Shown here: in pieces, positions 1 through 6,751 of the stretch
How the letters are laid out: each line of letters starts with the position of its first letter
Position numbering within the stretch: the stretch's first letter is position 1
Source of the DNA: Ceraceosorus guamensis
Taxonomy: Eukaryota; Basidiomycota; Exobasidiomycetes; Ceraceosorales; Ceraceosoraceae
Assembly (NCBI RefSeq): GCF_003144195.1
Contig: NW_020290157.1
Coordinates: 1,396 to 21,780 of the forward strand
Reading direction: 5' to 3'
Length of the DNA: 20,385 bases
Notes under the pieces: generated by a model
Told to the model about the DNA's origin: nothing
The model's input: only the letters and a program-made list of their open reading frames with translations
Databases searched by the model: none
Translations under genes and position numbers: made by a program

Positions 1-290
1 CACCACCACCGGCGCCCAGACCCTACTTCTCACCCTGCACCATCTAGAGTTAACCCTACCGTCGAGTAGGGTTAAAATCCTGACCCTACTGTAAATCTAG
101 AGTCGACCCCAAGTAGGGTCTAGGGTCGGCGGAAAGTAGGGTCAGGGTCTAACCCTACTGTAAATCTAGGGTCTGACCGTTGGGGAAAGTAGGGTTAGGG
201 TCTAATCCTACCTCGACATCCAGCCAAACTCTAGATTGGTAGGGTCTACAAAGTAGGGTTTAGCCCTAGATTTGCGGTAGGGTTAGACAT
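1..290. repeat. Degenerate TAGGG/CCCTA subtelomeric repeats
   Basis: The stretch is dominated by imperfect units built on AGTAGGGTTAGGGTC and its complement. TAGGGT occurs on the + strand near 67, 115, 136, 189, 240, 254 and 278, and ACCCTA near 22, 54, 94 and 164. The spacer TGTAAATCTAG recurs near 96 and 159. Units face both ways, so this is not a simple telomere array; short inverted pairs such as TAACCCTAC with GTAGGGTTA could fold into hairpins. It may be a decayed telomere-derived satellite or one end of a subtelomeric element. No coding potential is seen. Confidence 0.75.
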
Positions 291-577
291 TTTGCCTTCC
301 ACAGACAAGACCAAGAGGCCTTGAGGTCTGAGCTTCTGCATTTAGGGGTTATTTGAGGCGCTCTACAAGCCTATTGAATAATCTGCTCCAGGGTTAAGCC
401 AACTTTGCTGAGTTCCCCAGCCAACAAAAAATTCAAAGCGTCATATCTTGCTCACGTGATGTCCAACCAAAGGGACACCGTATAGTACCTTGAAGCGCTT
501 CTCAAGGGCTATCCAAAACTGCAAAGACCTGCAAGATTTATGGACCAATTTTTCCCAACCCTGCCGGGAACACCTAT
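291..577. other. Unassigned segment between telomere-like repeats
   Basis: About 290 bp with no open frame of note lies between the degenerate TAGGG repeats and the clean CCCTAA block. It holds a CACGTG at about 454-459 but no recognisable gene. Because it has telomere-type repeats on both sides, it could be the end of an element that inserted into a telomere, or subtelomeric DNA joined to a healed break. I recognise no family. Confidence 0.4.
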
Positions 578-612
578 CTAACCCTAACCCTAACCCTAAC
601 CCTAACCCTAAC
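578..612. repeat. Interstitial telomere block (CCCTAA)n
   Basis: Five perfect TAACCC units plus a partial one form 35 bp. This is the complement of TTAGGG, the telomere repeat of many filamentous and basidiomycete fungi. The C-rich strand reads 5' to 3' on the + strand, as at a left chromosome end, so the telomere would lie towards position 1. Since 577 bp of other sequence lie outside it, the block is internal within this window. Confidence 0.9.
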
Positions 613-1687: not shown

Positions 1688-3490
1688 ATGCCTCTTTTCT
1701 TTGAAAACCCTTCCCCCCGTTCTGAGCCCATCCAGTCCATCTGCTGCAGTAAGTGTTCGAGGCTGTAATCATCTTTCATTGGTCTCCGCTCACCTCCACA
1801 AGTGTACCTTTTCCTCGCACATAGTTGGTGCTGGCTACGTCGGTGGCCCAACATGCGCTGTGCTTGCATGGAAGTGTCCGAACATCTGCGTCACCATCGT
1901 CGACATCTCGCAAGAGCGCATCGATGCTTGGAATAGCGATGAGCTTCCCATCTTTGAGCCCGGATTGGAGGAGATTGTCAAGTCTCGTCGAGGGAAGAAT
2001 CTCTTCTTTTCGACAGACATCGATGCTGCTATCAGTGAGCAGATTTTCACGTTTCCGGCGTGCTCGATTGAACGCTGAATCGAATGCCTCGTGGATCTGG
2101 CAGTTGCTGCCGATCTCGTATTTGTTAGCGTCAACACTCCCACCAAGACGAGAGGCGTGGGCGCCGGGTATGCTGCGGATCTGCAATACGTCGAGGCTGC
2201 CACGCGACGCATCGCGCTCCTATCCACCAAGAGCAAGATCATCGTAGAAAAATCGACGGTTCCTTGTCGCACAGCCGAATCCATGCGAGCGATTTTGGAT
2301 GCTACATCTCCTCGTCCTGGCGTTCACTTCGACATTCTGTCGAATCCGGAGTTCCTTGCTGAGGGAACGGCAGTACAAGATCTCTTGAAGCCTGACCGCA
2401 TCCTCATTGGCGCTCTCAACACCAAGAGCGGCAAACTTGCGCAGGATCGCTTGGCGAATGTCTATGCTACCTGGGTCGAGCGTAGCGCTATTATCACCAC
2501 CGGTCTTTGGTCAAGCGAGTTGACAAAATTGGCCGCCAATGCGCTCCTCGCTCAGCGGATCTCGAGCATCAGCTCGCTCGCAGCAATTTGCGAGAAGACA
2601 GGCGCCGAGATCGACGAGGTAGCTCGAGGCTGCGGCAAGGACTCGAGGCTGGGTCCGCACTTTCTTAAAGCCGGCCTGGGCTTTGGAGGCAGTTGTTTCC
2701 AGAAGGTGAATGGTGCTGCAAGCGTGATCGAGACCGTCCTGGCACTGACTGGTCACATTGTGCTGGCATCGATCACAGGACATCTTCAATCTCATATACC
2801 TCGCCGAGACTTTCTCTCTTCAACCTGTGGCGGACTACTGGCGCCAAGTACTCGTGATGAATGAGTGGACAAAGGCTTCTTTTTCGCGCACCATCATTCG
2901 TCATATGTTCTCGACGGTTAGCAACAAGAAAATTGTGAGTGACTTGGCCCTCTGATCGGGCCAAAACCACGCTCAAGCTGGCTGTCGACTCTATGCAGGC
3001 CCTTCTGGGCTTCGCCTTCAAGAAGGACACCGGCGATACCGTGAGTTATCGCTGACTTGAGAGTCCGTGTTATGACTCGCTGCTCAGTCGAGTCCTTCCG
3101 TTTGCCAAGCGCGAGTCTCCTGCCATCAGCATTGCTCGCGACTTGCTCGTTGAGGGAGCGGAAGTGTACATTTACGATCCGAAAGTAAGCGAGCGCAACA
3201 TGCGTCAGTGCTTGGGCGCCTTCAGCAACTTCCACTTCTCTTCTTCGGTGGAAGCTGCTGCCTTGAACGCCTCTGCAGTCGTGGTTGCCACAGATTGGGA
3301 CGAATTCAAGCCTAGTAGTAGTAGCGGTAAGACCGCCGCTGCCATCGACTGGACCAGCATCTACGCCAACATGAACCGCCCAGCATTTGTCTTTGACGGT
3401 AGAGGCATACTAGATACCGCCGCGCTCCAAAACATTGGTTTCAAAGTTCACACCGTTGGTCGAGGCAACTTGGTTGACACGCTGTCGTGA
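1688..3490 (+). CDS. UGD1: UDP-glucose 6-dehydrogenase, six exons, intact
   Basis: UDP-glucose 6-dehydrogenase oxidises UDP-glucose twice with NAD+ to give UDP-glucuronate, a cytosolic precursor of glucuronic-acid glycans and UDP-xylose. Exons are 1688-1748, 1825-2034, 2104-2705, 2779-2934, 2999-3040 and 3110-3490; introns are 64-76 nt, GT-AG, and all phases agree, giving 483 aa, close to animal enzymes of about 480-495 aa. The Rossmann motif GAGYVGG is at residues 22-28. The active-site set is complete: Thr142 in EKSTVP, Glu173 in NPEFLAEG, Lys232 and Asn236 in [12 protein letters not shown], Cys288 in GFGGSCFQK and Asp292. The third domain shows [10 protein letters not shown] and VYIYDPKV. 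The first exon encodes a 20-residue lead ending SICC, which joins to IGAGYVGG across intron 1 and so decides the start. The last intron uses a CCAAG acceptor, the weakest join. The GH16 remnant lies just downstream on the same strand. Identity is near certain; exon ends are inferred by eye. Confidence 0.93.
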
Positions 3491-3934: not shown

Positions 3935-4425
3935 GCAGAGAGATCCGGCCATCGACACCTCGACGTGGGGTGAGCCTGCAGCATTCTTTGACTTGCAGAC
4001 CTGTCAGGAAGAGCCGTGGGGCGATCAAATGATTGTAAGTTGGACGAGAAGTTGAGGCAAACTGAGCACGTGCTGCTGCACACGTAACGCGGCTTACAAA
4101 AGGGTGGCATCTGTCGCAGGTGCTCAACATTGCTCTGTGCGGTGATTGGGGTACAGCTACTTACGAAGCTAGTGGCTGCGCTCCACGATATCCTTCCCGC
4201 GCCGCTCAAGTTGCTCAAGCCCCCGAGTCTTTTTCCGAGGCGTACTGGTCATTGAAAAGCATGCGCATCTACACCAACGGCATCAGCATCGACGATAGTC
4301 AAGACACCAACGGAGCCGCAACCACGACCACTACCAATCCAAATTCTGCTCCGTATTCTGGTGTCTTCTCTCTGCTTTCCCTTTCTGTCATCTTTCTCGC
4401 AACTGCTACGACTCTCCTCGCCTGA
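3935..4425 (+). pseudogene. 3' remnant of a GPI-anchored GH16 glucanase
   Basis: Two exons survive, about 3935-4034 and 4120-4425, joined by a GTAAGT...CAG intron (4035-4119) in phase. The first encodes IDTSTWGEPAAFFDLQTC and the second opens VLNIALCGDWG, the C-terminal part of the GH16 endo-1,3(4)-beta-glucanase fold (compare the family's PxAFFD...C...LxLNIAxCGDWAG and the later AYW...IxxYT strand). After that come a Thr/Asn-rich linker and a hydrophobic tail ending FLATATTLLA, typical of a GPI-anchor signal. Family members act on wall glucans at the cell surface. The signal peptide and the ExDxxE catalytic strand should lie upstream, but only about 440 bp of non-coding DNA separates the remnant from the dehydrogenase, so it is 5'-truncated. 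The left edge of the homology is approximate. A short transcribed fragment cannot be excluded, but it could not be an active glucanase. Confidence 0.75.
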
Positions 4426-5203
4426 TGTATAGCGCCATTATTTTCGCTCTGGGCCTCGCCCGTCTTCACGTGAGCTTATCTCTACCGTGCAGTTGTCATC
4501 AAGATCGGGCACTTAGCTTAGCACATTTGTGTGAGAGCGTTCGTATAGAATTTTGAGTTGTGCATTTGTGCAAAAAGCGCGTCACAGTGAAGGTCCTTCA
4601 CACTACCGTCGGTCATGGAGTTCATTGTCACATGAGACTCGGTCGGACATGGAGGATCTGAGAGCATACTCTGACTCTTTTCTATTTGACACTCATAGCA
4701 CGATGACGAGCTCTGCGCAAGCCATTGATGCTCTCACCAGAGTTCTAGCCTGAGAGAGTCACTTCAGCTCGATCCAAGCAGGACTTGCTTGCGGGAGCGC
4801 GGACACGAGCATGGGGCTGTTGCCGACTTTTCTTAACTTCTCACACAGCTACAGAGCCATACGCGGGGGCAGCGCGACGCGTATTGATCGATTCATGACT
4901 GATTTGTCAACTGCCCCACCTCAAAATATCGTGAATGCATGACAAGCAGCAAGCAAAAAGTCGTATGTCTGAGCGAACAACGTGGATTTGGACGCGTCTG
5001 ATGTACGCGCGCGCGACGCATGGACTTACCTTGATTCGTGATTGACGCGCGCGACGCGCGCAGCCTGCAGTGATGAGTGTGAGATCAAATTTGATCCCTA
5101 TGGGCAACTTGCTTTCTTCTCTGCTTCTGTTCCACCGCCACCATCACTCTGCCCTTCCCACATCAATTATCCAACCACCATCACTTGGTCCTTCAACATC
5201 AAT
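4426..5203. other. Intergenic region upstream of the dioxygenase-like gene
   Basis: No gene is supported in about 780 bp. It contains CACGTG near 4469, a GATTCGTGATT copy near 5034, CG-rich alternating tracts at about 5006-5020 and 5044-5062 (ACGCGCGCGACGCGCGC), and from about 5110 a pyrimidine- and ACC-rich leader that ends at the ATG at 5204. The last part looks like a 5' untranslated leader. Confidence 0.5.
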
Positions 5204-6751
5204 ATGTCAAAGCAAGCTACCAAGCCCAAAGCAGGACCAGATGTCTACCAGCTCAAGAGAAACTTAGCTCTTGAGCTTGCGGCTTCCAGTACTGAGCAAC
5301 ATGTCCTTCAAGTCACACAGCACCAGTATGATGGATGTACAAGCGCTACAATGCTCCCAACTCTTGCAGAGCACAAGGCTGGACAGCCATCAACAGCCAC
5401 ATGGGCAAGCATCACTGGAGCTTCATTTGTTGAGGGAGGGTATGTGTTGGGGTGGGCTCAGATAGCCGGGTCCTTGCACATACAGGAGGGGGCCAGGAGA
5501 GGCGCGCAAGCTCTTTCAAGCTTCCGCAGCAAGGGGTAAAGGTGGTGCAGGGTTTGAGGGGCAGGGATGAGGCCCAGGAAATGGAGGTTTGGGAAATGGT
5601 GGCTGTGGGGGTAAAGCCGATGGAGGGAAATGATTTGGAGAGCTCTGCCTTGTTGCTGGTTCAGGCAACTCCCCAACTAGTACTTGTACTAGACCAAGCA
5701 AAAGCGGGAAATCACCCTGCTTTGCAAGGTATCCCTTTGGAGCAGGGTTACTGGATCTGCGAGCCGGAGAAAATTGGTTGGCACCTTTTGCACGACAATG
5801 GACTCTTGCTCGCAATCCAAATGGAGACCCTTGGCTCGCAAGATGCCGCCTTTGCAAATGACTGTTGCAGGCGTGTTGTGGCAACTTCTATTCAATCCCG
5901 CAAGGAGATTGAGCACCACGGCACAAGGGTCTTTCATGGGAATGCGGTTGGGATTGGCTACCGCAAGGAAAAGGCGGGAAATGTGGGCCTCTACCGGAAT
6001 TGGAGGAAAAAGATGGTGAGTGGGGGCGCAGGCGCGTGAGTGAGTGACCACGTGCGCTGACGCTGGGCGCGCACATAGTCGGTGGAGGAGCAGGATGAGC
6101 AAGTGGTGAGGGAGGACGCATTGCTGGACTACACGGCAGGACTCTTGGCAGGGGTCATGCCGGGTCTCCATAAAGAGCACGTGAAGAGTGCGAGGGATGC
6201 TGGCCTGCCTCTGTACAGGTATAGGGGGTATGCGGTGCAGGGAGCGGCCTGCGCTGGATACGTTTCAGGACACCACACGGTGAGTTGGGCACGCGCGCAC
6301 ATGCCGCGTGTTCTCGTACCGCGTGTTCTCGTACCGCATGTTCTCGTAACTGACCGCGCGTTCTCACTTGCACGCCACGCTGCAGGACCCTCAAGATCCC
6401 GATTTCACTGTTGGAATTGACCTCACAATGGACAAAGATTGGGGGAAGCTACCTCCTGGCGCCCACAACTTTGCCATTGCTCCTTTTGGGCTGGTTATGA
6501 GGAATGGGCCCGGTGTATTTATGGTTTGGAGGGGTGGTGTGCCGCATGGAACGACGGTCCCGGGGGATTTCTCACAGTTCGAAAAGGTCACGGAATTGGC
6601 GCACACCTTTGGTTGCGCCATGTATATGAAGCCTCCTGCCCTTAGTCGCGGTTTCAAGCAGTCCAAAGCCCTCAAGACGCTATCTAAAGATTCCAACCTC
6701 CCCAATACCTTTGATGTAAATCACCCCCTTCCTTGGTTTCCCGAATCGTGA
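5204..6751 (+). CDS. Putative TET/JBP-like Fe(II)/2OG dioxygenase, four exons
   Basis: Proposed exons are 5204-5439, 5511-6015, 6079-6279 and 6386-6751, giving 435 aa with no internal stop. Introns 2 and 3 are clear (GTGAGT, acceptors CATAG and TGCAG, phase 0). Intron 1 (GTATGT donor, CAAG acceptor at 5510) is the best in-phase choice but uncertain. Near the C-terminus the protein reads SGHHT-DPQDPDFTVGID, then GPGVFMVWRGGVPHGTTVPG. This fits the double-stranded beta-helix of Fe(II)/2-oxoglutarate dioxygenases: His313-x-Asp315 and a distal His368 as iron ligands. The upstream segment GTRVFHGNAVGIGYRKEK and the helix LLAGVMPGLHKEH recall fungal TET/JBP proteins, which oxidise 5-methylcytosine or thymine in DNA and are often linked to KDZ transposons; no KDZ transposase is seen here. 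The first 150 residues have no recognised domain. Family assignment is by motif memory; another 2OG oxygenase family, or an unrelated protein, remains possible. The gene itself is well supported from 5581 on. Confidence 0.55.
6303..6350 (+). repeat. Tandem repeat within intron 3
   Basis: Three copies of a 15-bp unit close to CGCGTGTTCTCGTAC stand in tandem within the intron at 6280-6385, which explains why this intron is longer than its neighbours. The third copy differs by a few bases. Confidence 0.75.

What the first reader, a model, noticed from the sequence alone, without database searches (positions are those of the whole stretch)
5204..6751. Subtelomeric gene for a TET/JBP-like dioxygenase with its HxD motif split by an intron
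Seen: two clear introns join frames that read ...SGHHT|DPQDPDFTVGID... and then a distal PHGTT 53 residues after the Asp. Known: the HxD...H iron triad on a beta-helix defines Fe(II)/2OG dioxygenases, and basidiomycetes have many TET/JBP genes, often linked to KDZ transposons. Inferred: this is a divergent, stand-alone TET/JBP-like enzyme placed about 5 kb from telomere repeats. The long N-terminal region without a known domain could set its target. Modified bases near telomeres are known in kinetoplastids (base J), which makes the location worth a look.
Basis: partly seen in the sequence, partly recalled or inferred. Interest (0 to 1): 0.75.

Follow-up and report, generated by a model that had tools for sequence, protein, structure and literature searches.

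The report
Divergent TET/JBP-like dioxygenase gene near telomere
A real fungal gene that looks like a distant cousin of the iron enzymes that oxidise bases in DNA, the only copy found in this genome whose reading frame is still open, but it lacks a residue those enzymes normally need and its fold could not be tested.

Summary
Window 5204-6751 carries a spliced gene (about 435-445 aa); a phase-0 intron (6280-6385) splits H-T from D of an HxD motif, and a distal His follows 53 residues after the Asp. Broken relatives lie on contigs C77, C73 and C116. In the three alignable copies HHTD, the Asp three residues on, and the distal His are invariant, and the HxD-splitting intron is shared. Pfam, PHROGs, NCBIfam and PDB gave no credible match, so TET/JBP membership is not shown. 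The best link is to kinetoplastid JBP1: a 76-column profile alignment pairs HTD with HTD and His with His (24 of 1000 shuffles score as high, none of them over 70 columns). Most comparisons with other TET sequences failed. The Arg that holds 2-oxoglutarate in TET proteins is Thr in all four copies readable there. The 5' part of the window gene and the C77 and C73 copies lie in CpG-depleted stretches, in a genome with a DNMT1-like methyltransferase, as expected of methylated transposon cargo; no transposase was found. The subtelomeric position is supported. Best reading: a divergent TET/JBP-type Fe(II) oxygenase with a transposon-like footprint and possibly altered co-substrate use. A telomere-specific role has no support.

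The parts
5204..5439 (+). Exon 1 (N-terminal part; 3' end uncertain)
   Evidence: Open frame from ATG; GTATGT donor at 5440; resemblance of this part to the N-terminal region of the C77/C73 copies is by eye only
5440..5510 (+).
   Evidence: In-frame acceptors at 5501 (438 aa) and 5510 (435 aa); the stronger acceptor at 5485 breaks the frame
5511..6015 (+). Exon 2
   Evidence: tblastn relative on C77
6016..6078 (+). Intron 2
   Evidence: GT...AG; the C77 copy also breaks its frame at this point
6079..6279 (+). Exon 3, ending ...SGHHT; HxD His at 6274-6276
   Evidence: Aligned to C77 and C73; codon checked
6280..6385 (+). Intron 3, phase 0, splits HxD; holds a 15-bp tandem repeat at 6304-6348
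   Evidence: Shared in place with C77 and C73; repeat
6386..6751 (+). Exon 4 with HxD Asp (6386-6388), Asp+3 (6395-6397), distal His (6545-6547), Thr at the 2OG-Arg place (6605-6607), Tyr (6623-6625), Lys (6629-6631), stop
   Evidence: Codons; invariant in three copies
5101..6000 (.). CpG-depleted stretch (observed/expected 0.35; background 0.99)
582..611 (+). (CCCTAA)5 telomere-type repeat about 4.6 kb upstream of the gene

Best explanation
The gene encodes a divergent Fe(II)-dependent oxygenase of the double-stranded beta-helix kind, closest in motif to the JBP/TET DNA-base oxidases, and is the only copy found in this genome with an open frame through the catalytic part. Inferred mechanism: HxD and the distal His hold iron; Asp+3 and the late Tyr and Lys grip a flipped-out base; oxidation of methylcytosine or another base counters silencing of the element that carried the gene. 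Thr in place of the 2OG-anchoring Arg implies a changed co-substrate site, or weak or lost activity. Shown here: gene structure, family, conserved motif, shared intron, CpG depletion of three copies, a DNMT1-like enzyme in the genome, subtelomeric site. Inferred: fold, iron binding, DNA substrate, transposon origin, activity.
For: HHTD, D+3, distal His, Tyr and Lys invariant in three copies. Profile alignment to JBP1 over 76 columns with HTD on HTD, His on His and CAMYMK on CVFYYR; as high in 24 of 1000 residue shuffles, 5 of 250 column shuffles and 5 of 420 ORFs, one of those five being a family fragment that I had failed to remove; none of the 1000 shuffles or 420 ORFs as high covers 70 columns. 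MAFFT alignment of JBP1, NgTET1 and relic: 0 of 250 column shuffles as high. C73 copy v JBP1 by BLASTP: E 0.002 as a single pair. AlkB aligned at its own HxD. Tyr and Lys sit where published structures put base-contacting residues. CpG depletion; DNMT1-like gene; PF12851-matching relic in the genome.
Against: No Pfam family at E<=10, none in PHROGs or NCBIfam, no credible PDB match. NgTET1: 123 of 200 shuffles as good; relic: 49 of 200; relic by hmmsearch E 14; two hand-set three-sequence alignments: 71 and 29 of 250 shuffles as good (the first was out of register). Window and C77 copies alone find no JBP1 match by BLASTP. The 2OG Arg is missing. Exon-4 model pLDDT 38. No transposase or terminal repeats found. 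The C116 minus-strand copy is not CpG-poor.
Confidence: 0.5

Rival explanations
1. A beta-helix Fe(II) oxygenase of some other branch (AlkB-like, hydroxylase or cupin-like) that acts on RNA, protein or a small molecule, not a TET/JBP relative.
For: No PF12851 match; AlkB also aligns at its HxD (score 15.2 v 18.3 for JBP1); Thr at the TET Arg place.
Against: JBP1 aligns over 76 columns against 36 for AlkB; Asp+3 and the Tyr/Lys pair fit the TET layout; transposon-like CpG loss.
Confidence: 0.2
2. A dead or dying gene: the window copy is a recent pseudogene, or a protein that lost catalysis.
For: All relatives found are broken; the best intron-1 splice pair breaks the frame; the 2OG Arg is missing; the 5' part is CpG-depleted.
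Against: Exons 2-4 stay open with sound introns; the iron-site residues are kept; codon-position pattern of past purifying selection, though that reflects the family history, not the present.
Confidence: 0.3
3. An unrelated protein in which HxD and His fall in place by chance.
For: Such motifs are common; no significant database match.
Against: The motif is invariant in the alignable copies; unsupervised alignments to JBP1 and AlkB both choose the HxD register.
Confidence: 0.2

Closest known systems
JBP1 thymidine hydroxylase domain (PF12851; kinetoplastids)
   Same: HTDxxD, distal His, end strand C-x-x-Y-x-(R/K); aligned in register over 76 columns
   Different: JBP1 matches PF12851 at 6.4e-36, the window protein not at all; 53 residues from Asp to distal His; Thr where TET/JBP proteins have the 2OG Arg; no sign of base J here
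Transposon-borne fungal TET/JBP genes, types PU, AG, PE (Kojima 2025, PMC12730594)
   Same: Fungal, multi-copy, HxD...H, CpG-depleted copies in a methylating genome, proposed anti-silencing role
   Different: No transposase or ends found here; not HxE (PE hallmark); Gly, not Asp, at D+9 (the AG/CcTet Asp337 place); the PU type could not be compared by sequence
CMD1, algal TET homologue that uses vitamin C (PMC7854593)
   Same: Asp at D+3; aromatic plus basic residue near the end (F416 and R418 v Tyr and Lys); 2OG not held in the usual way
   Different: CMD1 keeps the Arg (R410) but turns it away, here it is Thr; no direct sequence comparison was made
CcTet of Coprinopsis cinerea (PMC11040006)
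   Same: HxD...H, and an aromatic residue six places after the Arg position
   Different: CcTet R385 is essential; Thr here; no direct sequence comparison was made

Membership tests
TET/JBP (PF12851) | HxD...H iron-binding triad, conserved in the family | tested here: met
   Invariant in window, C77 and C73; by sequence only, metal binding not tested
TET/JBP (PF12851) | Match to the Tet_JBP profile | tested here: not met
   0 families at E<=10 for window, C77 and C73; the profile does find JBP1 (6.4e-36) but reaches NgTET1 only at 0.048
TET/JBP (PF12851) | Arg that anchors 2OG, six residues before the base-stacking aromatic | tested here: not met
   Thr in 3 of 3 aligned copies and in the C116 minus-strand copy; reference residues from passages. 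The position is set by spacing to Tyr; the profile alignment to JBP1 allows another pairing
TET/JBP (PF12851) | Base-side residues: Asp/Asn at D+3 and aromatic near the end | tested here: met
   Asp and Tyr invariant in 3 of 3; TET2, NgTET1 and CMD1 residues. CcTet has Gly331 at that place
TET/JBP (PF12851) | Double-stranded beta-helix fold | tested here: inconclusive
   Only exon 4 could be folded, one sequence, mean pLDDT 38.3
TET/JBP (PF12851) | Oxidation of a DNA base | not testable with these tools
   Needs an assay
PE-type fungal TET/JBP | HxE in place of HxD | tested here: not met
   HxD in 3 of 3; hallmark
AG-type fungal TET/JBP (CcTet) | Asp at D+9 (CcTet Asp337) | tested here: not met
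   Gly in 3 of 3, ungapped count; hallmark
TET+ DNA transposon | Transposase, terminal inverted repeats and target duplications around the gene | tested here: inconclusive
   KDZ and PF20515: 0 matches in the genome, controls also silent; 10 ORFs, 9 from the C77/C73 islands and 1 from C85: only weak matches below cut-off; inverted repeats no better than in control stretches; CpG loss fits

The most novel reading that the evidence does not exclude
A fourth fungal TET/JBP-like type that kept the iron site and the base-reading residues but replaced the 2OG anchor by Thr, so that it uses another co-substrate (as CMD1 does with vitamin C) and makes a so far unseen DNA base modification in a methylating fungus.
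Probability: 0.12. Interest if true: 0.8.

Novelty: new variant of a known kind. Interest (0 to 1): 0.42.

Why it matters
If the fold is right, fungal TET/JBP-like genes have a branch that the current Pfam profile misses, with the usual 2OG anchor gone. That makes a co-substrate question testable on a single protein and would add to the three transposon-linked types named so far. If not, it is a caution against naming dioxygenases from an HxD motif.

Tried and rejected
Relatives in viral contigs (18 stretches matched a pattern, none confirmed) and genome contigs (19, none); phage records with the C85 relic (none). PDB by sequence (only chance-level hits; with the relic: none). KDZ and 2OG-FeII_Oxy_6: no match, controls silent. 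DUF6818 in the C77 island (E 0.019) dropped: the genome search listed only C47 at E 0.055. Inverted repeats of 12 bases with one mismatch allowed: 6 (C73), 2 (C77) and 4 (window, one with a 2-base repeat AG beside it) against 1 and 6 in two control stretches. AF2 on exon 4: useless, so no fold search was run. NgTET1 and the C85 relic by profile: not significant. Telomere-specific role: nothing for it beyond location.

Choices that shaped the counts: the CpG background of 140 blocks leaves out the islands, the first 3 kb of L020 (0.5-0.9), the last 0.7 kb of L014, and all of L016 and L017. The C116 minus-strand copy (41.3-41.7 kb) reads 0.76-0.95 and the plus-strand piece 0.57-0.61, so not all copies are CpG-poor. 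The 420 decoys are a random part of 503 ORFs of at least 85 aa, cut to 98 aa; the top one (31.5) proved to be a family fragment, which leaves 4 of 419 true decoys at or above JBP1, over 10-18 columns. JBP1 was one of three reference sequences tried (AlkB a fourth, later), so its significance is flattered by selection.

Full report
Observation. The gene at 5204-6751 reads through three introns. Introns 2 and 3 are sound; intron 3 (106 nt, phase 0) lies between T and D of HHT|D. Asp to distal His is 53 residues. Intron 1 is uncertain: the strongest-looking splice pair breaks the frame, two weaker acceptors give 438 and 435 aa.

Family. A six-frame search of the whole genome gives relatives on C77, C73 and C116, and a search with the C77 copy adds a second piece on C116 (14 matches, all on C162, C77, C73 and C116; such counts are lower bounds). 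All relatives found are broken by stops, rearrangement or deletion. C77 and C73 have a GTAAGT...AG intron at the HxD split. In the alignment of exons 3-4 of window, C77 and C73, 64 of 188 columns are invariant, among them HHTD, D+3, the distal His, a late Tyr and Lys (one X each in the C77 and C73 rows). Exon-4 differences at codon positions 1, 2 and 3 are 35, 23, 67 (window-C77), 41, 31, 64 (window-C73) and 32, 22, 57 (C77-C73) of 96 codons, so the family evolved as protein-coding sequence before it decayed.

Kinship. No Pfam family at E<=10 for the window protein, C77 or C73; none in PHROGs or NCBIfam for the parts given; PDB matches only at chance level. A relic on C85 does match PF12851 (E 6.7e-6, 25.9 bits, below the cut-off of 34.9), so TET/JBP sequence was once in this genome. 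Profile alignment of the family to a JBP1 fragment covers 76 columns, pairs HTD with HTD and His with His, and the end strand CAMYMK with CVFYYR. Its score is equalled by 24 of 1000 residue shuffles, 5 of 250 column shuffles and 5 of 420 ORFs, of which one is a family fragment; none of the 1000 shuffles or the 420 ORFs that score as high covers 70 columns. The C73 copy alone gives BLASTP E 0.002 to JBP1 as a single pair; window and C77 give nothing comparable. Tests that failed: NgTET1 (123 of 200 shuffles as good) and the C85 relic (49 of 200), hmmsearch of the relic (E 14), two hand-set alignments of JBP1, NgTET1 and relic (71 and 29 of 250; the first was out of register). A MAFFT alignment of the same three did well (0 of 250). 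AlkB aligned at its HxD with a lower score over 36 columns. PF12851 itself reaches NgTET1 only at E 0.048, so a missing profile match does not exclude kinship. I read this as moderate support for a beta-helix Fe(II) oxygenase and weak support for the TET/JBP branch.

Active site. From passages of PMC7854593 and PMC11040006: TET2 R1896, NgTET1 R289 and CcTet R385 hold 2OG, and the base-stacking aromatic is six residues later (Y1902, F295, F391); CMD1 has R410 and F416 but uses vitamin C. Counted from the invariant Tyr, the family has Thr at the Arg place in window, C77 and C73 and in the C116 minus-strand copy, which however lacks the Lys. The base-reading Asp at D+3 (CMD1 D350, NgTET1 D234) is present. 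So the iron site and base-side residues look kept while the 2OG anchor is gone, which fits a changed co-substrate or loss of activity. The profile alignment allows another pairing, with a non-conserved Lys, Arg or Asp there.

Setting. CpG observed/expected averages 0.99 in 140 background blocks of 500 bp (SD 0.14, minimum 0.65), but is 0.20 in the first 500 bp of the window gene, 0.41 over C77 18.85-22.6 kb and 0.48 over C73 41.85-46.6 kb. In the window coding sequence (442-codon model) 47 CpG stand against 66.6 expected from synonymous shuffles (0 of 1000 as low); later parts of the gene read 0.74 and 0.88, and the C116 minus-strand copy is not depleted. The genome has a cytosine methyltransferase on C19 whose nearest solved structure is DNMT1 (E 1.7e-38). 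CpG loss in islands is what methylated repeats show, and PMC12730594 (parts 1-5 of 7 read) describes TET/JBP genes carried by many fungal DNA transposons, with anti-silencing as the proposed role; the words Ustilag-, smut, Exobasidi- and Malassezi- do not occur in its main text. No transposase or terminal repeats were found here, so transposon origin stays an inference.

Telomere. (CCCTAA)5 lies at 582-611. Window 1-611 recurs at 94% on C3 (3.7-4.3 kb in), its inner part at 95% at the first bases of C77 and at 98% at the last bases of C166, each time ending at a CCCTAA stub. I infer that C162 and C77 reach chromosome ends. Then two of the four loci are subtelomeric (about 4.6 kb from the repeats, and about 19-22.6 kb in); the C116 copies lie 1-3.5 kb from a contig end of unknown kind; C73 is mid-contig. 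Nothing ties the protein to telomere chemistry.

Verdict. A real gene, correctly described, with an interpretation that is plausible but short of proof: a divergent TET/JBP-like oxygenase, transposon-like in its footprint, missing the standard 2OG anchor. The review PMC13297926 (passages) calls transposon-encoded TET/JBP dioxygenases yet to be functionally characterised, and says Ustilago maydis lacks methyltransferases, unlike this genome. Searches for such genes in smuts showed me no paper on them; only listings were seen, and most subscription journals are not held.

Noticed in passing
window 1-611: Sequence with degenerate TTAGGG-like repeats that ends at a CCCTAA stub and recurs near the start of C3 and at the ends of C77 and C166 at 94-98% identity: a telomere-associated repeat or telomere-targeting element. 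The bases before it are withheld.
   Followed up: partly
L017, about 4882-5055 (C85:22481-22654, minus): Relic matching PF12851 (E 6.7e-6), with a stop codon between the H and D of its HxD, in a CpG-poor stretch.
   Followed up: partly
L040 (C19:225.4-227.4 kb): Multi-exon cytosine methyltransferase gene, nearest solved structure DNMT1. An upstream piece that looks like a BAH domain by eye has no Pfam match.
   Followed up: partly
L014 about 4226-4532 and L015 about 3026-3314: A second stretch shared by the C77 and C73 islands (75% over 309 bases), possibly another decayed gene; no domain above cut-off.
   Followed up: partly
window 6304-6348: 15-bp tandem repeat (3 copies, CpG-rich) inside the intron that splits HxD.
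   Followed up: no
window 2091-3490: UDP-glucose dehydrogenase-type gene between the telomere repeats and the dioxygenase-like gene.
   Followed up: no
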